Assembly: GCA_037042915.1 (NCBI GenBank) | Contig: CM073193.1 | Coordinates: 9,114,001 to 9,178,000, forward strand | DNA: 64,000 nucleotides | Source: Auricularia sp. M13 | Taxonomy: Eukaryota; Basidiomycota; Agaricomycetes; Auriculariales; Auriculariaceae | Reading direction: 5' to 3' | Shown here: piece by piece, positions 808 to 19,073 of the stretch | Position numbering within the stretch: the stretch's first letter is position 1 | Layout of the letters: each line of letters begins with the position of its first letter | Notes under the pieces: model-generated | Seen by the model: the letters and a program-made list of their open reading frames with translations, nothing else | What the model was told of the DNA's origin: nothing | Databases searched by the model: none | Translations under genes and position numbers: made by a program

Positions 808-980
808 AGGCGCCTATTCATCGTTGTACAGGTAGTGGAATATTCTGATCCAAGAATTAATGGGAAATGGTGTCCTTCACGGCCTCCTCTATGCCCCATT
901 GACTCACACGAACGCACAAGGTCACGAATCCAGGCGGACGGTGACCAAACCTGCCGGGTTTCAGTCCATCCTGCCAACCA

Positions 981-1770
981 TCATCGGCACCGCGCATGAC
1001 CTTTGCCTTCACGGCCCGCATGTCCCGTGTAGCCATGCGAAGACGCGAGCATCCTGGAGTTTGACAGCCATCCATTGCGGTAGCCAGTCTCATGGGCAAT
1101 GCATACTACGTAGCGATGCGAGAATGCATCAGTGCCGCATGCCGCATGCATCACACCTTCAAGCGCATCAAAGTCGAGGCCGCAGCGCAGGCAACTCGCC
1201 GAGTTGGTCTGGCCAGTATCGTTAGCCCACGTCTCGTCGGCGGCCTCGTCGTCCTCGAGCTGACAGATGTCCAACACATCAAGGCCCAGATGTGTCAGTT
1301 CGGGCATTGCAGCGAGGATGTGATCGATGTGTGCAGGAGTGGGAGACCTGTTGGAGCCATCCTCGCGGGGAAAGTAGCCGACAGGCGCGTTGCGGACGCT
1401 AGCGTCGCTGCGGACATGGTACAACTGCTTGCCGCGGCACCGGCCTGACAGCCGGCGCATGGTGCAGGCATTGGCAAAGCGGCTCTGCGCCCCCCGCCCG
1501 GCGAAAGCACCGTGTGACGACGCTCTCGTAGTCGTACCCTCTCCGCAAAGAAGCAATCGCGACCCATGTACGGCACGCCGAAGTCCAGCGTCAAGTCTAA
1601 GGCGAGGCCGCTGCTGCCCGTGAAGCAGCTTGCGGATTTGGTTTTGAAGCTTGACGTTGAACCAGGTACGCGTCAAGCTCTGCCAGACGCTGCTTTCTCT
1701 CAGGCAGATACGGCTCACCGAGCTAAGTCGCTGGCTAACATGAAAGCAGGGCGCAGGCCGGTGGCACAGA
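981..1770 (-). pseudogene. Degraded F-box-like coding remnant
   Basis: On the minus strand a stretch reading SRICLRE, SVWQSLTRTWFNVKLQ and, one frame over, LDLTLDFGVPYMG resembles the post-F-box region of basidiomycete F-box proteins. A later piece (HILAAMPELTHLGLDVLDI) is leucine-rich. The pieces lie in different frames without good splice sites between them, so I read this as a decayed copy rather than a gene. It faces the F-box-like gene at the left edge. Weak assignment. Confidence 0.27.
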
Positions 1771-3364
1771 AAATGCGGAGAGGCGCGAAGCTGGCGCTCA
1801 GGCTCGCCCTCGAGCTCGAGCTGGCATACGCCCGCTTGGGATTTTGCGGCGGCCTTGGCTCAGATGGAGGGCGTCTAGACACTCGGCGGGGAGTAGTATG
1901 CTGAGCCTGGCACATAGAACACAAACTCGAGCAGCACCGCGGGGGCGACGCAGGCCCAGCATAGTCTGTCAGAACAGACATGCACGGGGTAGTCACGGCC
2001 AGGGTCCTGCCCACATCTACGCTGATAGACTTCACACATCGTGCGCCGCCCAACACAGGGTCACGTTGTTGTCTGCCATTGAAACCGTCTGAATCGGCTC
2101 GCCAGCCGTCCGCAAGCCCGAGCACTACGCTGCAGAGCCAGCTGACAGAGCGTTCACAGAGGCGTAGAAAGGCCCGAAACGACGCGGCGGGCGTGAGATT
2201 TCCGGCTATATACTGGAGGCTTGGGCACCGGCACCGGCGCAGTTCAAAGTCTGACACTCCAGGTTCACAAGCACCAAAGCCCACGCGGTTTGTAAATGTA
2301 TCAATCAATGCCACCACAGCGGCGGACCTCGAGTCCGGCCGGGTTATTGACATCGAGTGAGATGTTTGCGAGCAGCATGGCTATGGCGCCGACCGCATCG
2401 TGCAGGACCTGCTTTAAAATTCTTCAGCACAGAGCGCGTACATCCTGCATGCGGCAGCTTGTGCACCAAACCCTTATCCTGCTTCGCGTTTTTCTTTATG
2501 CGGGTGTTGCAGATGGTATCGGCGAGCCCGCTGGGTACGGGGAAGCTAAAGAGGCTGGAGTGCGGCGTTTGAATTGCGGACATGCTCTCTTGCCTCCAAA
2601 TTCACACGCAGCTGCAGATCACGCTTCAACGGCCCATGCTCCAGCACGTCTCGTTCGTCGACACCATGGCCGGGCACACTTTGAATTTGCGCCGAACCAT
2701 GATGTCCAACTCGCTCGACGGAACTGCATCTGTAGGATCAGCACCACCGTTGCCAACGGCGGTGGCTTGTGTTCGAGGCTTGTATATTCCAATGTTTGCA
2801 CAGCCGCGACTGCAGACTTCCTTGCGGATAGGAAAGACCCATGTTCTAAAAGCTGGCAGGAATTGACGCTAGACATCGCCCAGCCTACATTTCTCCCGCT
2901 TCTCTTTGCGACGTGTTCGAGATGCTTCTCTGCCCCCTAGGCGCGATATCAGAGATCGGAACCCCTGGACAGACTTTGCATGTTTATCAGCCAAGGATTC
3001 CTAAGGTCCCAACCTGACCTCTGTACCACCACTACTTGCAATGGGGAACCGGGCGCTCATGAACTGATGCAGTCTACTAAATCTCCGGTATATTAGAGTG
3101 TCACTTCCGCGGTGGACGAGCAACGTTACCAAGCCGGCTGCAATTCAAATCAGTGCGTCTTTCCTGGGCCCGAAATGTTTCGAGCCTGTGAATGAGATGC
3201 CGATTCACTCACCGGGCTGGATCTCCCAATATAGTTTCCTTGACGTCCACCTTCCCCCCACTTCTTGAACGGCAGTAGTCCCGTGGTGGGTATAAGACGT
3301 GCGTCCAGCTCGGAGCAAACTTGGAGACGCTTGGTAGCCTTCCGAACCCCACGTCCCGCCCTCC
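1771..3364. other. No supportable gene
   Basis: Open frames exist on both strands (the longest on + at 2296-2940), but none shows a family signature, a coherent exon structure or coding-like conservation. A TATA-like GGGTATAAGA near 3287 lies about 75 bases before the ATG of the DUF6533 gene at 3365 and may be its promoter element. Confidence 0.4.
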
Positions 3365-5916
3365 ATGACCGACGTGGATAGCACCTTGCGCGCGCTGCAG
3401 CCCGTGTTTCAGTCGCTCGAGCGCGCGCATATCGTTTATGTGCGTCGTGTGCTCTCCTGTGCATTGACTACGAGCAGATTCCTCACGCAAGCGATAGTTT
3501 GTGCATAGTGCGCCGCTAATAGTCCGCCCGCCATTGCGACGAATTTAGACGATCCCCAGTGTCTGCTACAGTCACGGAAATAAATATTTGTACACCCTGA
3601 TTATAATGACTCTTGTATGGACAACTGCACAGCCCGATGCACGAGCAATCTTTTACTAATAAGGGGTGTAGATGACAAGTACCGAAGCTTTAATTTGGTG
3701 GTTCATTGAAGATGATTGGATTGCTGGTTCTCGTGCTACAGTCGTAAATGTGAAATACCTATATGTGCACTGATCACCCCGCAACTTCTGATCAAATATA
3801 GGAAGCACCAAACAAAGTTTTTATATAACATATCAGAGGGTGTAGTACTAGATTATGACAGGAGAAACTACGGGAAGGGCTGTGTTGCAGAGCTAGGATC
3901 AGGTAAACATGAGTCTCAAAGTGGCCAAAACTTGACCAACTTGCCAAGGGCCGCCCAATATACTCCCATCATTGTGAGTTATTCAATGCAATTGACTCAG
4001 CAATAGCTGTTTGCTGTTATGAGGTAAAGGTATGAGGGATGGCAAGCAGCAATTGGCAAGTTGGTCAAGTTTCGGCCACTTTGAGACTCATGTTTACCTG
4101 ATCCTAGCTCTGCAACACAGCCCTTCCCGTAGTTTCTCCTGTCATAATCTAGTACTACACCCTCTCATATGTTATATAAAAACTTTGTTTGGTGCTTCCT
4201 ATATTTGATCAGAAGTTGCGGGGTGATCAGTGCACATATAGGTATTTCACATTTACGACTGTAGCACGAGAACCAGCAATCCAATCATCTTCAATGAACC
4301 ACCAAATTAAAGCTTAGGTACTTGTCATCTACACCCCTTATTAGTAAAAGATTGCTCGTGCATCGGGCTGTGCAGTTGTCCATACAAGAGTCATTATAAT
4401 CAGGGGTGTACAAATATTTATTTCCGTGACTGTATCAGTGTATTCGTATGTTCTATCCACCCATATACAACCATTCAAGCTCTAACATTCTCCCTTTCCT
4501 CTATAGGTGTATGATCACCTGACGACATTCGCGGACGAGGTGGAGATTATCTGGCCGCACGCTTGGAACGCCGGGAAGATTATATTCCTGATTGCGCGGT
4601 ACACAACATGGCCTGAGCTGCTGATCACTATCTACAGTAAGCCCCAAACTTTCTCGTCCTGAATTCGCATCAGAGTCTTCTGGTTAATCGACTTGGTGCT
4701 CAGTTGATTTCGCCAATGTCGAACCGCAGTTCTGCCACGACGTTCTCATCTACGGCTCGTGTGCGTTTGACACACGCGCAGTAGAACTTGCCTGATGCAA
4801 CAATAGGGTCTACGATGCTTTCTTTCGTCCTAACGAGCGGTGAGTCATCTCCCCTCGCCATGGCATTCTGCCGATGATGAGCTATCTTTCCCAGCGATCC
4901 TCGTCTTGCGAACGTGGGCCCTATGGGGTGGCAGCCAGCCGATTTTTATTTCATTATCGTCGTTACTTCTAGCAATAATTGCCGCCGACATCTACCTCAT
5001 TGTGTACCACATCAATCACGTCGCCTGTGAGCCGGGGTCGGACACTCGTCCGTGCTCTGCGCACTCACTAACAAGGCTATCAATGCAGATTTGCGGGCTT
5101 CTGACCCCACAGCGGTGCTCAAGGGATGCGTAATCGCGTCTACAACCAACAAGCTCGGAATCTTCTGGTGCCTGCACACTGCGTTCGATCTCTGTGAGCC
5201 CGCAGCGAATAGAGATTTTGAGTCACAGCAAACTCTCATCATCGCCCCATCGACACACAGTGATTGTCGTCCTAACTCTGATACCTGGGGTCCAACATTG
5301 TATGCACCTCCCACTGCTTCGCAATTCTCTATCTGAAAGTCTCATTTCCCATTGACAGTCCGGTTTGGAAGTTCGAACCTGATCACCTCGCTATACCGCG
5401 ACAGTAAGCCAGCCCATGAGTGGTCTACTGAGTTAATCTCCTGACTGGGATCTTCGCAGGCATCCTTTACTTTGTCTTCCTCTTCGGTATGTTCCCTGCG
5501 TTGGAGAACAACTATTCCCAAGTAACGCACGCGCACCAGCGCTCTCCCTGGGAAACCTCATGTCGATTTACCTCGCATCGGTATGGCCTTTTGCCTCGGT
5601 CACACCCTGAGCGGTCGATCTCATGCTGACGTCGGTCTGGACTCTGCAGAAGGAATTGGGCTTGCTGGTAACCTTGTAAGTGGTCCAGTGCAACTCTTCA
5701 GATCTGACCGCCGAGTCTAATATCTGGCCTCCCTCCCCGACTGGCAGGCTGCAACGCTCGTTCAACGCGATCATCGCCTGCAAGATCATCATGCATCTGC
5801 AGGCGGCGTCCCGCGTGCGTGTGCCCACCGGGACAGACACCTTGACGACGTTCGGGGCCGGCCTCTCCTTCACCAAGTTTGCACCGCAGAACTCGACCAC
5901 ATACTCTAGATGCTAA
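3365..5916 (+). pseudogene. DUF6533-type multi-pass membrane protein gene, exon 2 split by a fold-back element
   Basis: Thirteen exons can be joined in one frame: 3365-3446, 3560-3568 plus 4435-4445, 4507-4636, 4704-4760, 4807-4839, 4895-5026, 5089-5193, 5261-5299, 5359-5403, 5460-5486, 5540-5580, 5650-5675, 5748-5916. Together they give about 301 residues. The signature VYDHLTTFADEVEIIW (exon 3) is the conserved start of DUF6533, an Agaricomycete-rich family of seven-helix-like proteins of unknown function. Hydrophobic helices follow: MLSFVLTSAILVLRTWALW, IFISLSSLLLAIIAADIYLI, ILYFVFLFALSLG. The second exon (TGTCTGC-TA-TCAGTGTATTC) is interrupted at its TA by the 868-bp element at 3567-4434. 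With that insertion removed every junction is in phase and has GT-AG borders, so the host gene was intact when hit. The first splice donor is the least certain. Unless the element is skipped in mRNA, the gene is inactive. Confidence 0.85.
3567..4434. mobile_element. Fold-back element with about 380-bp inverted arms and TA target duplication
   Basis: The left arm (3567-3945) and right arm (4055-4434) are reverse complements with only a handful of mismatches. They flank a 109-bp loop (3946-4054). The outer ends read TACAGTCACGGAAATAAA, a terminus of the Tc1/mariner superfamily type, and the flanking TA is duplicated. No transposase is encoded. The open frame at 3716-4006 crosses arm and loop and resembles nothing known. 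It is therefore a non-autonomous element that needs a transposase in trans. Its ends differ from those of the Tc1/mariner element at 7440, so that copy is probably not its source. Confidence 0.93.
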
Positions 5917-12822: not shown

Positions 12823-13516
12823 GCGGAGCCGTCGTTGCTTTTGTTGTCGTATGCGTCCGTCCATGCTGCATGTCATGTCACTCGTATGCTACGCCCCACC
12901 CACCCACCCAAAATGAAAAATGGCTTGTGCGCGCGCTGGTACAATCGGGTCTGGTGTGGCATGACATTTGCTTTCAATTCAACGCTTTTCTACTTTGAAG
13001 AATGTCCGGTGCTAGGTCGTGGTGGCGAGTGCCGAGTTAATTCGATGAAGGCGCCAGGCAGAGATGAGCTTGCCACGCGTCTCAACCCCTTTCTTCGTTC
13101 CTGCCCTCGTCCTAAATACCAACCTAGAGACATCGCAACGCTCACCTCGTCCCTTATCCCCGCATCGCATTGAGAATATTATCGCACACCTCACTCAATC
13201 GGCCTTTCTACAGCTTGTGCATACTTGAACACAGTCCAAAGCGCCCGACGTCTCTCACTCGACGCCTGGTCCTCATCGTTCGCATCTCTTCAAAGTCCAT
13301 TTACTCTACGGTAGTATACATAATTGCCACTCACTCGGAGCAAATTCAGGGTGTCTCGCAGACAATATTATGGCTGCCTGTGTGATATTTAATTTAACTA
13401 TGCAATGGGCCCGAGATCTAGAGCGAATGATGGTCGGACTCTGAGGCCTTAGACTGCAATTACTTATGACACCGTCAGGCTGGTTCGAGTCCTGTGAATC
13501 CTCATATGATAGCAGC
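12823..13516. other. 3' region of RPL21 and intergenic DNA
   Basis: T-rich downstream of RPL21 with no polyadenylation signal I would insist on. No gene was recognised. Confidence 0.4.
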
Positions 13517-13583
13517 GGGATGATGTTTACTTCGAACGATTATCTTCGAACGTTAAAGTCTGCGAAGGAGACTAGGGATGATG
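13517..13583 (+). mobile_element. 49-bp insertion with 9-bp target duplication, copy 1
   Basis: A 49-base core (13526-13574) starting TTTACTTCGAACGATTATC and ending GCGAAGGAGACTA is bounded by the perfect direct repeat GGGATGATG (13517-13525 and 13575-13583). A second, roughly 85-90% similar 49-base core lies at 18189-18237 with its own 9-bp duplication. There are no terminal inverted repeats. The 3' part can fold (AGTCT, 7-base loop, AGACT). Nine-base duplications are typical of Mutator-like transposition, but no known element this small is implied. Confidence 0.75.
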
Positions 13584-13934
13584 CTACCTCAGCCCGGTTA
13601 CCAGATGTCCATGATGCTACAGTACCTGGTCAGTCACGGTCGGACGTCCATTGGCAGCCTCCTAAATCCACCTACCTCCACAATAATCCAGGACTTGGCA
13701 CCCTCCTCAGCCAAATTGAAATAAGTACCCAAGTACACGTGCCGCAGCTACACCGTCCGAATTGGGAACAAGCGCCCTTGTTCTCAGACGGGGCGGGGAT
13801 CAGCTGCAGCATCACGTCCACCGTCCACCGCTCCCCCGGTACCCAGAGTGGATATAGTGCTGCTGCTTCGAGTTCGAATTCGTGCAGTGCATTAGGGGAC
13901 TGCCGGGTGACACATGGGACCTAGGTGCATATAT

Positions 13935-14075
13935 TCTAATCTCACGGCCGCGTGCGGCGTGCATACATTCTCACGGCCGCGCGGCGTGCATACATTCTCA
14001 CGGGCGCAGGTGCAGAGATTATCACGAGTGCGAGGCGCATGCATAGATTCTCACGAGTGCGGGACTCACACGGCC
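13935..14075 (+). repeat. Degenerate tandem repeat, unit about 27-35 bp
   Basis: The word GTGCATACATTCTCACGG recurs with drift (GCATACATTCTCACGG, GCAGAGATTATCACGAG, GCATAGATTCTCACGAG). About five imperfect units are seen. Confidence 0.7.
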
Positions 14076-14600
14076 TCAGGGCGCATACAGAGCTTCAAAA
14101 CGGCGCGGCGCGCGTGTATATTGCCGGGCTACGAGACAGAGGTGTCGAAAGTGAACTGGTGGTACATGTACAGACAACAAAGTTCCAATCCAATCCAACC
14201 AAATCCAAACCAAAAACCAAAAACCAAAAACACAAGACAAGAAGACGAGAAGGGCGAAAGGACGGGTCGCAAAAGAGTACTGTGAGCGAAGTGGTAGCAG
14301 CAGTGGGTCAACCAATAAAGAGCTCGCGCGAGCGAGAAATGAAAAGCCGAGAGCTCGCGCGAGCGAGGAACGGGAGAACCGGGACGCGAGACGAGACGAG
14401 ACGAGAGAGCCGAGACATGGAGAAAATGAGGTGGTCGAGAGTCGCGGGCATGGCATCGTAATCAGATCAGAGGGCGAGTATAGCATCGCGGAGCGCATCG
14501 ATGGACGGGCGGGTGGGTGGGTTGCGTTGAGAAGGTTCGAGCGGCGGGAGTGGGAGTGGGAGTGAGAGTGCGGGCGGGAGGAAAGAGGTGGATGAAGGCG

Positions 14601-14640
<40 letters not shown>
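14601..14640 (+). repeat. Homopolymer A40
   Basis: Forty consecutive A residues. The flank to the left is G-rich (GGGAGTGGGAGTGGGAGTG). I see no target duplication around it that would mark a retroposon tail. Confidence 0.98.
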
Positions 14641-14641
<1 letters not shown>

Positions 14642-14739
14642 GAAAAGAGAAAGAAAAGAATTCAGAAAAGTGCATGGCGCGGCCCTCTGCGGGCGCGCGC
14701 CGTACGCGGATGGACTTGTGCGCCATACCAGCCAGTCGT

Positions 14740-15520
14740 ATGCCGTCCCGCGTCGCGATCTCAACACCAGAAGACCTTCGCGTGCTTGTGTGGTCGCGGT
14801 CTGGTGCTATCTGCCATTGACGGCCGATCGGCTACACGGAGGGCAACAGCGTCAGCGCATTTGGGGAGGAGGATGGAAGGAGAAAGACGTACGTTTCGAC
14901 GGGGGGCAGCTAGCGGGTGTCCGCCTAGTCCCAAGTCCTGAACGGCACCGTTTGGCGCGGCGCGAATGGACGTCGACGCCGCCAGCGCCGCACCGCGTCG
15001 CGATCTCGACACCAGAAGACCTTCGCGTGCTTGCGTGGTCGCGGTCTGGTGACGGGCGATCGGCTACACAAACCAGCCATCTCAGCGCGCATTGGGGGAG
15101 GAGGATGGAAGGAGAACGACGTACGTTGCGACAGCGGGGCAGCTAGCGGGTGTCTGCCGAGTCCCGACTCCTGAACGGCACCGTTTGGCGCGGCGCGGAT
15201 GGACGTCGACGCCGCCAGCGCCGCCCCGCGTCACGATCTCAACACCAGAAGACCTTCGCGTGCTTGCGTGGTCGCGGTCTGGTGCTGACGCGAGATCGGC
15301 TACACAACCCAGTCACCTCAGCGCGCATTGGGGGCGAAGGGGCAGAGGAGAAAGACGTACATTGCGACGGCAGCTCCGAGGCGGCGCGGATGGACGTCTG
15401 CGCCATACCATACTAGCCAGTCGTATGCCGCCCCATCCCGGTCCGAACAGCACACCAGAAGACCTTCGCGTGCTTGCGTGGTCGCGGCCTGGTGCCATCT
15501 GCCATCTGCCATTGTGTCAG
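14740..15520 (+). repeat. Four diverged tandem copies of a 212-244 bp unit
   Basis: The anchor ACCAGAAGACCTTCGCGTGC begins near 14766, 15010, 15245 and 15459. Each copy is followed by TGCGTGGTCGCGG and, with drift, by GGAGGAGGATGGAAGGAGA and a GACGTACGT element. Copies 2 and 3 are the most alike. No continuous coding frame is shared by the copies. Confidence 0.8.
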
Positions 15521-15703
15521 CGCTTATCGTGAAGGGAGGAGGCAAGGAGAGAGGACGTACTGCTGGACGGGGGGCATATCGGGAATCACGACTGGATGCG
15601 GGACGGGGCTCAGATTCTGTAATATAATGCGCGGACTCGGCGATGAGCAGGCAGCGAGCGGCGCGATCGGCGAAAACACGTACCGGGCTGGTCAACCGTC
15701 GGC

Positions 15704-16075
15704 GTGAAAAGAAAAGAAAAGAAAAGAAAAGAAAAGGTAAGGAGAAAGAAAAAAGTAAAGGAACAGGGCAGACCGCACGCGCGAAGTGCGAAAGGAAATG
15801 AGACACCGCGGGCGTGCGAAGAAGAAAATGGGTATAGCTCAGCTCATGTGCTTCGTGGCGAGGAAGAGCGCGATGAGCATGAATGAAAGGAGAGCAAAGT
15901 GAAAAGCGGGAGAGCGGAGGGTGGAGAGCGGACGAGAGCGCCGGGGATGAGAGCGCAGAGAGCGGACGAGAGCGCTGGGGATGAGAGCGTTGTCGACGAT
16001 GAGAATGTAGAGCGATGCGATGCGATGCGATGGCGAGCGATGATAACGATGACGATGACGATGACGACGAGAGCG
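15704..16075 (+). repeat. Microsatellites and short tandem repeats
   Basis: An (AAAAG)n tract at about 15704-15736, a 37-bp imperfect duplication containing GCGGACGAGAGCGC at about 15925-15990, and GATGC and GATGAC repeats at about 16015-16072. Confidence 0.85.
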
Positions 16076-16178
16076 ACCAAAGGGGAGAGCATAGAGCGGA
16101 CGGGACAACGGACGAGGAGACACAACAAACTCGGACTCGAGACAAGAGAGGAGGGGGAGCATAACGACACCAACGCGC

Positions 16179-17661
16179 TCAGCAGCGCACACTGACGCTC
16201 TCCGCCAACGTCCGCGGCCAGCTCGCGCGTTTCGGCCCAGTGCCGGCGACGGTCTGGTCGGACGCGTAGAGCGGCACCTCGACGCGCGGCAGGGTATAGC
16301 GCGCGCGCGGGCGCGACTCGACGAGGGAGGTGCCCGCCAGCTGGCCAACGAGCGCGTCGACCGTCGGCGGCGCGAAGGGCGTGTAGGCTGCCAGGCCGGC
16401 GGCGAGCGCGTCGAGCTCCTGGGCGACTGGCGCGGGAGAGGGAGCAGGGGCGGGTGCGGGGGCGCGGCGGGTGGGCGGCGGAGAAGCGGTCGGGCGGGCG
16501 TACGGGCTCGCAGCCGCGCGGGCGCTGGTGGATGTGCGCGGCGAGCGGCGCACGCTGACGGACTCGGAGTCGCTGCCCGCGCGGGAGGGGGCGGGGGCAG
16601 CAGGCGGCGGGGTGGCGGCGAGGCGCGGCGAGCGGCGGGTGTACGGGCTGGCGGTGGACCGGGCGCTGGTGCGCGACGAGCGCCGCACGCGGCCGCCGCC
16701 GCTGCTGCTGGACTCGGACTCGGCGTCGCTCGCGCCGGCGACGGTGACGGATGACGCGTAGACCGTCTCGAGCGGCGCGATGCTGGGCAGCGCGCGGCGC
16801 GCGCGCTGCTCCTTCTCCTCCTGCGCGGGCTGGGCGATGGAGTAGCCGGCCATCTGGGCGGCGAGCGCGTCGACGGTGGGCGGGGTGAAGGGCGCGTAGG
16901 CCGACAGCGAGTCGGCGAGCGCGGCCACATCGGGTGCGGGTGCGCGTGTGGGTGTGCGGCGGGCGTACGGCGCGGCGTGGGCGCGGGCGGCCGAGCGGGC
17001 GGGGCGCACGCGGCCGCCGTTCGAGCTGGCGCTCGAGTCGCTGTCGCTGCTGGCGCTGGCGTGGGAACGGGCGCGTGGGGAGGATTGCAGGCGGCAGATC
17101 TCCTCCGCGGCGCGCTGGGCGGCGAGCATCATGCACGCGTCGTCGTCGTCAAAGCAGGCGCGGGCTTCGATGTCGGCCTCGGCGTCGGGGTCGTGGTGGA
17201 CGCGGTGGGGGTGGGTGCCGCGGCAGCCGAAGCGGTCGGGGCACATCCCCACGACGGCGAAGAAGGTCTCCATAATACAGCACACGCACCAACTGCCTTG
17301 CCGCATACAGCTAGTATGGTGCGGGAGTGCGGTGGGGTACTTGACACAACTTGTGACGATGATGGCAAATTCCTGCGTGGCGAGCGGGTGAGCGACGCGG
17401 TACAAGCGGCAGAGACGGACTGACTTGAACGGTGACGCGGCGACGGATGAAGGGCTGCATACAGTTGAGGGCCTTGGTGCAATACTTGACGACGCCGGCG
17501 GAGTTGTGCTTCTTTGCTTCGAGAGCGGCATAGTGGATGAACTGGTGCGCCTTGGGCGTCACGTACGGGCCATAGGAGTCCTCAACGGCCTGGACGATGC
17601 CGACCATCTTCTTGCTAGCGAGGGCGTGGGGGCTGGGGGTGCTGCGCAGGGTAGCAGACAT
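16179..17661 (-). CDS. Orphan protein with conserved N-terminus and repeated disordered tail
   Basis: Two exons (17661-17425, 17372-16179) encode about 476 residues. The N-terminal part (VGIVQAVEDSYGPYVTPKAH, NCMQPFIRRRVTVQ) looks globular. It is followed by a short Cys/His stretch (CPDRFGCRGTHPHRVHH) and a long low-complexity tail. The tail contains diverged modules: DALAAQMAGYSIAQ / DALVGQLAGTSLVE after a TPPTV or APPTV lead, three SARxxAxPYxRR blocks, and two YASxxTVAG blocks near the end, each beside a serine/aspartate cluster that could be phosphorylated. No domain family is recognised. The splice GTCAGT...CACGCAG is 52 bases and in phase. An extra in-frame intron near 17290 is possible. 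It could also be two genes, with METFFAVVGMCPD as the second start. Confidence 0.6.
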
Positions 17662-17984
17662 AGAGCGACGAGCGGGGCAGAACGGAGGGCAGGGGAGCGG
17701 GCCAAAGGGGCGCGGCTTTAAATCTAATCTGGTCCCGCGCAGGATGGCGACGCGAGCACCGCCCCCATGCCGTAACGGTCCCATGCTAGGCCCAATCCGG
17801 CCGGCCACGCGCACGCGCCCCCCCGTTTCCCGCGTCCGAGTCGTGACAGTGATGCTTCGCGGCGGCTGTGACTCGTGAGCACCCCATTTTTCTTCGAGGA
17901 CGTCGTTCCTGACATGGCGTCGGCGCGCGTTCAAGGAAAACCCACAAGTCTCTCTCTCAGACAGGAACTTGCGGGATATCCACG

Positions 17985-19073
17985 TCAATATTCGTCCTCT
18001 GGCTGTACACGCGCACCGGGACGCAGCCTCCAGAGTTGGAACGCATACTGGACCTCGTCGCCATCGTCGTTCACCGCCCTCGCGTACCCGGACGGCACAG
18101 GCTCGAACCACTCGAGCCTCTTCGCGGGGGACCTGATACACTCGGCCATGGCATTCACATACCGGTAGCCCATGAATGGGTCCCCCTGTTTACATTGGAA
18201 CGATTATCTTCCATCGTAAAGTCTGCAAAGGAGACTAGTCCCCCTGGGGCGCAAGGGACAGCGGCGTCGGGTCGTGCACGCCCGCGTACTGAAGCACGCG
18301 CCGGAACTCGTGGATCTGCCAGCCGCCGCACGCGCAGACGCGCCGTCCACTCGCGGTCGGTCTCGCGCAGCACGACGCGCCCGAAGTCGACGATCACGGG
18401 CTCGCCCCCCGGGAGACCGCAGGATGATGTTGGCGGAGCGGATGTCGTCGTGGATGACGCCGTACCGCCCAAACGCCGAGCACGGCGGCCGACATCTGTT
18501 CGTCCGCCTCTGTCGGCCCCTGCGCTCCGCAACGTCGCGCAGCGTGGCCCTCGACGAACTCAAGCGCAAGCCCGGGCGTGGCGGCAGGCATCGGATGCGA
18601 CGATTCAGGTAGCGAAAAAGAATCCAGTTGCGGGTCGCGTCGCAAACAGTTTCGGGATGGTCGTCCCCTGCAAAGCCGCGAGTCGGCGGTATGCCGAAAC
18701 GCCATGACCATACGCATCCAGGGTAAGTACCTTCTCGCGCAGACAGGGGTCCTCCGGGACGAACATGCTGAGGTCGGTCTCTTCAAGCGCGGGGTCGTCC
18801 GCCAGCCAGCTCAGACGCCGGGCTCCAGCTGTTATCCGAGACCCATGCGCGGTTGCAGAAACGCCGGTCGAAGAGCTTCACGAGCAGTGTCGAGGGAAGA
18901 CGCGGGTGTGGCGGCACGTGCAGCGCTTGCCCGTTCGAGAGCGGCAGGAAGGGCCGCACGATTTGGACCTCGGAGGAAGAGCCAGAGCCGGGATCGCTGT
19001 GAGTTTCGTGTAGCTGGAGCTCGAGCGTCGCTCCGGGCTCGAACGGGCAGTATTCAGGCAGACTGGACACCAT
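17985..19073 (-). pseudogene. Protein-kinase-like (fungal small-kinase type) pseudogene
   Basis: Kinase hallmarks appear in order but in shifting frames: LLVKLFDRRF (N-lobe), AYRRLAALQG, LALEFVEG (hinge), IHDDIRSANIIL (catalytic loop, HDD in place of HRD/HGD) and EPVIVDFGR (DFG). A tail MGYRYVNAMAECIRSP to PEDEY-stop closes it. At least three frameshifts are needed (near 18800, near 18530 in the LRDVAER block, and in the G-run before GEPVI), and a stop follows FFFAT. It is also split by the 49-bp insertion at 18189-18237, which adds an in-frame TAG directly after QGD. The family is the basidiomycete kinase-like group that phosphorylates unknown substrates. This copy cannot be active. Confidence 0.72.
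18180..18246 (+). mobile_element. 49-bp insertion with 9-bp target duplication, copy 2
   Basis: The core at 18189-18237 begins TTTACATTGGAACG and ends GCAAAGGAGACTA. It is bounded by the perfect direct repeat GTCCCCCTG (18180-18188, 18238-18246). Deleting the core plus one repeat rejoins the kinase-like frame as PQGD-PFMGYRY, so the empty site is directly inferable. Same orientation as copy 1. Confidence 0.8.

What the first reader, a model, noticed from the sequence alone, without database searches (positions are those of the whole stretch)
13517..18246. A 49-bp insertion unit with 9-bp target duplications and no inverted ends, present twice
Two related 49-base cores (13526-13574 and 18189-18237) are each bounded by a perfect, different 9-bp direct repeat (GGGATGATG and GTCCCCCTG). 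That is direct evidence of two independent insertions of the same tiny unit. Both cores start TTTAC, end GGAGACTA, and can fold near the 3' end (AGTCT, 7-base loop, AGACT); a second, less regular hairpin occupies the 5' half in each. There are no terminal inverted repeats. Both target repeats begin and end with G, so the inserted unit together with those G residues reads GT...AG on the + strand. This is reminiscent of introner-type insertions, though splicing would not restore the kinase-like frame. The second copy interrupts a kinase-like gene and the empty site is readable. I know of no described fungal element of this size and pattern.
Basis: seen in the sequence. Interest (0 to 1): 0.86.

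Follow-up and report, generated by a model that had tools for sequence, protein, structure and literature searches.

The report
Scars of a small fungal transposon
The two 49-base "insertion units" look like leftover right ends of a longer cut-and-paste transposon that jumped out and left its last ~49 bases behind, and many such remnants lie scattered over the genome.

Summary
In detail: two related 49-bp units, each flanked by a perfect, different 9-bp repeat. The interpretation changes. Elsewhere in the genome the 49-mer is the right end of longer transposons (about 340-530 bp, left end TAGTCT, right end GGAGACTA); 30 of 32 testable full-type copies have perfect 9-bp target duplications. Of 92 examined short copies, 46 have a perfect and 13 an 8/9 duplication; shuffled partners gave none perfect. 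Short copies keep the right terminus; their left edge is most often one point, GCAGAC|TTTAC, or lies inside it, rarely beyond. That point borders an inner repeat matching the element's left end better than the outer right end does. Non-templated bases at the left junction begin with T in 20 of 21 cases, several TA: the first bases of the lost left end. Best reading: excision between left end and inner right repeat left a hairpin-bearing 49-bp cap between the old duplications. The introner reading fails (at most 5 of 46 fit GT..AG). Transposase not found; no empty or filled allele available. The most novel surviving reading is one-ended insertion of a ~49-bp unit.

The parts
13517..13525 (+). 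left 9-bp target duplication of copy 1 (GGGATGATG)
13526..13574 (+). copy 1: 49-bp right-end remnant, family A; left edge exactly at the recurrent breakpoint GCAGAC|TTTAC
   Evidence: locus L005
13575..13583 (+). right 9-bp target duplication of copy 1
13531..13550 (+). TTCGAA - 8 bases - TTCGAA: inner stem of the right-end palindrome in copy 1
13557..13573 (+). AGTCT - 7 bases - AGACT hairpin next to the true right terminus, copy 1
18180..18188 (+). left 9-bp target duplication of copy 2 (GTCCCCCTG)
18189..18237 (+). copy 2: 49-bp right-end remnant, family B1 (full-type relatives L032, L034); left edge at the same breakpoint
   Evidence: locus L031
18238..18246 (+). right 9-bp target duplication of copy 2
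18220..18236 (+). AGTCT - 7 bases - AGACT hairpin next to the true right terminus, copy 2

Best explanation
Each unit is a scar of a small non-autonomous transposon with terminal inverted repeats. Shown: the full element is about 340-530 bp, starts TAGTCT, ends GGAGACTA and is flanked by 9-bp duplications. Its right end is double: an inner repeat resembling the left end (AAGTCTGCATCAA read inwards), then an outer cap of about 49 bp that holds one arm of a palindrome and the true terminus. Short copies consist of that cap, or a trimmed piece of it, between 9-bp duplications. Inferred: transposase sometimes pairs the left end with the inner repeat instead of the outer terminus and cuts there; the cell rejoins the donor site by end joining. 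The cap and both duplications stay behind, sometimes with one to three bases (T, TA, TAG) of the left end.
For: Same right terminus and flanks as full-type copies. Exact 9-bp duplications in 46 of 92 short copies and 8/9 in 13 more; none perfect with partners shuffled; tenth base agrees in only 7 and 8 of 46. 23 of 59 units align exactly to the edge GCAGAC|TTTAC or its homologue in family C; most others start inside it. The edge borders an inner repeat matching the left end at 14, 15, 12, 11 of 20 bases (0 and 0 of 20,000 shuffles, p 0.001, 0.005), outer terminus 9, 9, 7, 8. 20 of 21 non-templated left prefixes begin with T, several TA, the start of the left end. Units of several families match different full-type families. 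Duplications are better preserved in full-type copies (30 of 32 perfect) than in short ones, as expected if full copies turn into scars.
Against: No allele pair shows a full element turning into a short copy; no transposase with these ends was found. At least 11 examined family C short copies but no full C copy were seen. Some T prefixes can be point mutations of TTT or products of internal deletions (L046, L059, L129, L139, L149), and L156 could be templated with one lost G. A symmetric 2-base stagger would predict some TATAC starts; none was seen among 59. Of 30 short copies without a clear duplication only 3 show a truncated one at the junction, against 0.6 by chance. 33 of 92 have no duplication at 8/9 or better.
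Confidence: 0.65

Rival explanations
1. One-ended or minimal-unit insertion: transposase moves the ~49-bp cap itself, joining the true right terminus and an improper left edge to a target cut with a 9-bp stagger.
For: Exact 9-bp duplications; a preferred left edge; family C seen only as short copies.
Against: Left edges vary within one sequence variant, which a self-copying unit should not do; T/TA prefixes match the lost left end; short copies carry variants of several full-type families; the cap has no left-end repeat.
Confidence: 0.2
2. Abortive gap repair: after normal excision, repair copies the right end from the sister chromatid, stops at the palindrome and is joined to the left flank.
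For: Gives the same product; the palindrome could stop synthesis; trimming and short prefixes are expected.
Against: Should also leave left-end remnants, but 1 of 34 left ends found (union) is left-only (L065) and 1 is undetermined. Synthesis from the right should stop at the near arm, not beyond the loop.
Confidence: 0.1
3. Target-primed retroposition of a SINE-like RNA with a fixed structured 3' end and 5' truncation.
For: Fixed right end, variable left end, conserved hairpin.
Against: Duplication is exactly 9 bp; full-type copies have inverted ends; measured copies are either up to 59 bp or at least 337 bp, with none between (five full-type ends were held with too little flank to measure).
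Confidence: 0.03
4. Introner: an insertion spliced out as an intron using G from the duplications.
For: Both window copies read G|T...A|G.
Against: At most 5 of 46 short copies with a perfect duplication do; net lengths fall in all three classes modulo 3 (22, 15, 9).
Confidence: 0.01

Closest known systems
MITEs (non-autonomous terminal-inverted-repeat DNA transposons)
   Same: Full-type copies are short, multi-copy, with inverted ends and a constant duplication length.
   Different: Right end is doubled and hairpin-bearing; many copies are right-end remnants with intact duplications; superfamily unknown.
Tomato MULEs with tandem internal and external TIRs (PMC3310237, passages read)
   Same: An additional copy of the terminal repeat inside the outer end.
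   Different: There the authors saw no single-TIR copies derived from tandem-TIR ones in their main family and suggest the inner TIR diverges so that cutting stays outside; here remnants point to cutting at the inner repeat. The TIRs here are short.
Excision footprints of DNA transposons (rice: PMC4423477, abstract and two sections read; Ds: PMC1978519, abstract and one section read)
   Same: Target duplications left behind, deletions, filler bases, end joining; the Ds paper models cutting away from the terminus.
   Different: Footprints described there are mostly short; here one end leaves a defined ~49-bp cap at many loci.
Introners (PMC9860276, passages read)
   Same: Some families are small DNA-transposon-like units with 3-9 bp duplications.
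   Different: No consistent splice sites here.

Membership tests
MITE / non-autonomous TIR transposon (full-type copies) | inverted termini and constant-length target duplication | tested here: met
   TAGTCT...AGACTA with perfect 9 bp in 30 of 32; L076 has 8/9, L043 none
MITE / non-autonomous TIR transposon (full-type copies) | mobilised by a related autonomous element with the same ends | tested here: inconclusive
   none found: 6 MULE and 149 KDZ places; nearest to the 100 listed right ends 4.9 kb
MITE (the 49-mer itself) | inverted repeats at both ends of the unit | tested here: not met
   left edge TTTAC against right end TAGTCTCC read inwards
Mutator-like superfamily | 9-bp duplication (recalled; also stated for maize Mu in the listing) | tested here: met
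Mutator-like superfamily | MULE transposase with matching ends | tested here: inconclusive
   2 of 6 MULE loci read; L162 has other ends (GGAATGTCAGC), L161 showed none
KDZ superfamily | 7-8 bp duplication (PMC12730594, passages) | tested here: not met
   exactly 9 bp
Excision footprint | duplications with remnants of element ends between them | tested here: met
   46 of 92 perfect, 13 of 92 with 8/9
Excision footprint | filled allele at the same site | not testable with these tools
   no relatives held; same-flank paralogues all keep a remnant
Introner | GT..AG available across insertions | tested here: not met
   at most 5 of 46
Introner | spliced from transcripts | not testable with these tools
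   no RNA data
SINE / target-primed retroposition | variable duplication length and graded 5' truncation | tested here: not met
   exactly 9 bp; no measured length between 59 and 337 bp

The most novel reading that the evidence does not exclude
The ~49-bp hairpin-bearing cap is itself mobile in a eukaryotic nucleus: transposase acting on a single true end inserts it with exact 9-bp duplications, which would make it one of the smallest mobile units and a case of one-ended transposition.
Probability: 0.2. Interest if true: 0.82.

Novelty: new variant of a known kind. Interest (0 to 1): 0.5.

Why it matters
Short sequences with clean target duplications are normally counted as insertions. Here they are most simply scars, so many apparent tiny insertions would record excisions. 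A transposon that carries an inner and an outer version of one end lets one ask how a transposase chooses between them, with a readable genomic record of the choice. It is also a source of small length changes (19-59 bp plus 9 bp in the copies with a duplication) in host sequence.

Tried and rejected
Autonomous partner: MULE (6 places) and KDZ (149 places) searches; none lies next to the 100 right ends listed (nearest KDZ 4.9 kb, nearest MULE 13.6 kb; neighbouring KDZ matches merged by hand). Two of six MULE loci were read. Left ends without a close right end: L065 is left-only in the stretches held; C6:3647688 is interrupted and its right end was not reached in 2.25 kb. L071 and L074 (1159 and 1414 bp) carry foreign insertions.

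Empty or filled paralogues: L126 and L147 were used as queries; the same-flank copies (three each) all keep a remnant. Flank comparison of the loci held showed no full/short pair.

Rfam: no match in 13400-18400 at E<=1. Pfam: none for four pieces of the kinase-like gene. Papers: nine searches showed no described element with these ends in the rows listed; I read only the papers named, and most subscription journals are not in the library. PMC3411680 (passages) reports MITEs in Laccaria without the duplications needed for comparison.

Dropped rows: of 34 stretches fetched, five (L091, L093, L103, L110, L113) have no recognisable right terminus and were not counted. Three short copies were dropped as paralogous (95 to 92). 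Of the 92, the L030 match is a chance hit and L071 the tail of an interrupted full copy, so about 90 are real; L035 is a short copy with a nested insertion. These three were left out of the 30 re-aligned. One search listed 100 of 184 places, so counts are of the examined set, not of the genome. The script did not require the unit to end in A; L102 ends in G, hence 5 or 4 of 46.

Full report
Observation. Both units and both pairs of 9-bp repeats are exactly as reported. A 20-mer of the 3' half has only these two matches in the window. The genome (52.1 Mb, 14 contigs, window at C1:9114001-9178000) has 67 matches to the copy-1 pattern, 35 to the copy-2 pattern and 184 to the terminal 17-mer, controls 0, 0 and 3.

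The larger element. Many matches continue leftwards as GCAGAC into a longer element; measured lengths are 337-350, 511-516 and 527-528 bp, and 1414 bp for one with a nested insertion. It begins TAGTCT and ends AGACTA, and in the 340-350 bp groups contains GAGAGCCCCCAATTCGG and its inverse near the other end. Of 36 full-type right ends, 32 had enough flank: 30 have a perfect 9-bp duplication next to TAGTCT, L076 has 8 of 9, L043 has none. The interrupted copy L071 has its duplication too. These are MITE-like copies.

The short copies. I examined 95 short right ends, 92 after removing paralogous ones. 46 have a perfect 9-bp duplication, 13 have 8 of 9, 33 have less. With partners shuffled 200 times no perfect match occurred and 0.33% had 8 of 9. 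The tenth base agrees in 7 of 46 (left) and 8 of 46 (right), so the duplication is nine. Of the 59 units with 8/9 or better, 27 are 49 or 50 bp, 29 shorter (down to 19), 3 longer (51, 53, 59). By alignment 23 of 59 begin exactly at GCAGAC|TTTAC or its homologue in family C. Of 30 others re-aligned, three start further left: L042 by 3 bases, L017 and L158 by one. So there is a preferred edge with trimming inwards. Both window copies sit exactly at it.

Why the edge lies there. Just left of it is a sequence that, read inwards, matches the element's left end: AAGTCTGCATCAA against TAGTCTGTATCAA. Over 20 bases the match is 14, 15, 12 and 11 in four subfamilies (0 and 0 of 20,000 shuffles, p 0.001 and 0.005), while the outer terminus matches at 9, 9, 7 and 8 (p 0.05 to 0.29). 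In L016 both the left end and the inner repeat carry ATTAGAT. The right end is thus doubled. Cap and inner repeat form a palindrome: across eight variants 93.2% of pair cells are paired, five pairs change on both sides, and slid versions reach at most 40.9%. Eight variants are few, the structure was chosen on them, and three bases of family C were inferred, so this is support, not proof.

Mechanism. The left boundary of a short copy is exactly the end of the target duplication at dozens of unrelated sites, which points to transposase at the left end. 21 of 59 units have a prefix not templated by the right end; 20 begin with T and one with C. Some are probably point mutations or internal deletions, but L045, L049, L052, L100, L104, L112 and L156 carry T, TA or TAT before templated sequence, and L128 and L136 begin TAG and TAA; the lost left end begins TAG. 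This fits excision with a short stagger at the left end and a cut at the border of the inner repeat, then end joining. Full-type copies have better preserved duplications (30 of 32) than short ones (46 of 92), which fits conversion of full copies into scars. Of 34 left ends found (union), 32 belong to copies that have the outer terminus, one is left-only (L065) and one is undetermined, so no reinserted copy lacking the cap was seen. Shown: anatomy, duplications, edge, prefixes. Inferred: the cut at the inner repeat and the order of events.

Rivals. Insertion of the 49-mer itself is not excluded without other strains; it is disfavoured by left edges that vary within one sequence variant, by the T/TA prefixes, and by short copies that carry variants of several full-type families. 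Its best points are the missing TATAC starts and family C, of which at least 11 short copies (L101, L105, L108, L109, L111, L112, L114, L115, L135, L156, L159) and no full copy were seen. Abortive gap repair should also leave left-end remnants. Retroposition fails on the exact duplication length and on the lack of intermediate lengths among measured copies. Introner: at most 5 of 46 fit GT..AG, two of them the window copies.

Known relatives. The 9-bp duplication suggests Mutator-like, but no transposase with these ends was found, so I do not file it there. KDZ duplications are 7-8 bp and Plavaka 2-3 bp according to PMC12730594 (passages). Tomato MULEs with tandem TIRs (PMC3310237, passages) are closest in anatomy. 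Excision footprints in rice (PMC4423477, abstract and two sections) and of Ds (PMC1978519, abstract and one section) are closest in process; the Ds paper models how cutting away from the terminus can attach an inverted repeat to one end, a possible origin of the cap (inference).

Gene context. The second copy lies in a minus-strand stretch with kinase-like motifs; joining the flanks leaves an open frame across the site, but the motifs are spread over frames and Pfam gave nothing for four pieces, so no consequence for a gene is claimed.

Noticed in passing
L162 (G000:C6:1565000-1570800), about 872-4342: A MULE-type element: 688-aa open frame, inverted ends GGAATGTCAGCACGGA / GGATTGTGAGCCCGGA (13 of 16) and a perfect 9-bp duplication GATGCTTGG; possibly autonomous, but with other ends than the element studied.
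   Followed up: partly
L035 (G000:C3, near 4230249): A 49-mer-type short copy is itself interrupted by an element of roughly 700 bp that seems to duplicate TA; the 9-bp duplication GACGTTGCC flanks the whole.
   Followed up: partly
L001 1541-2986: A tandem repeat of about 297 bp lies directly right of a full-type copy, and the 9-bp target sequence recurs in it at that spacing.
   Followed up: no
window about 14766-15500: The block ACCAGAAGACCTTCGCGTGCTTG...GTGGTCGCGG(T/C)CTGGTG recurs about four times with diverged spacers and can pair its ends (CACCAGA/TCTGGTG); seen by eye.
   Followed up: no
window about 14601-14640: A run of about 40 A in an otherwise G+C-rich stretch.
   Followed up: no
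L036 (G000:C9:5393) and L051 (G000:C12:1128665): About 3 kb of 92.7% identical flanks around the same short copy, one of them close to a contig end: a segmental duplication.
   Followed up: no
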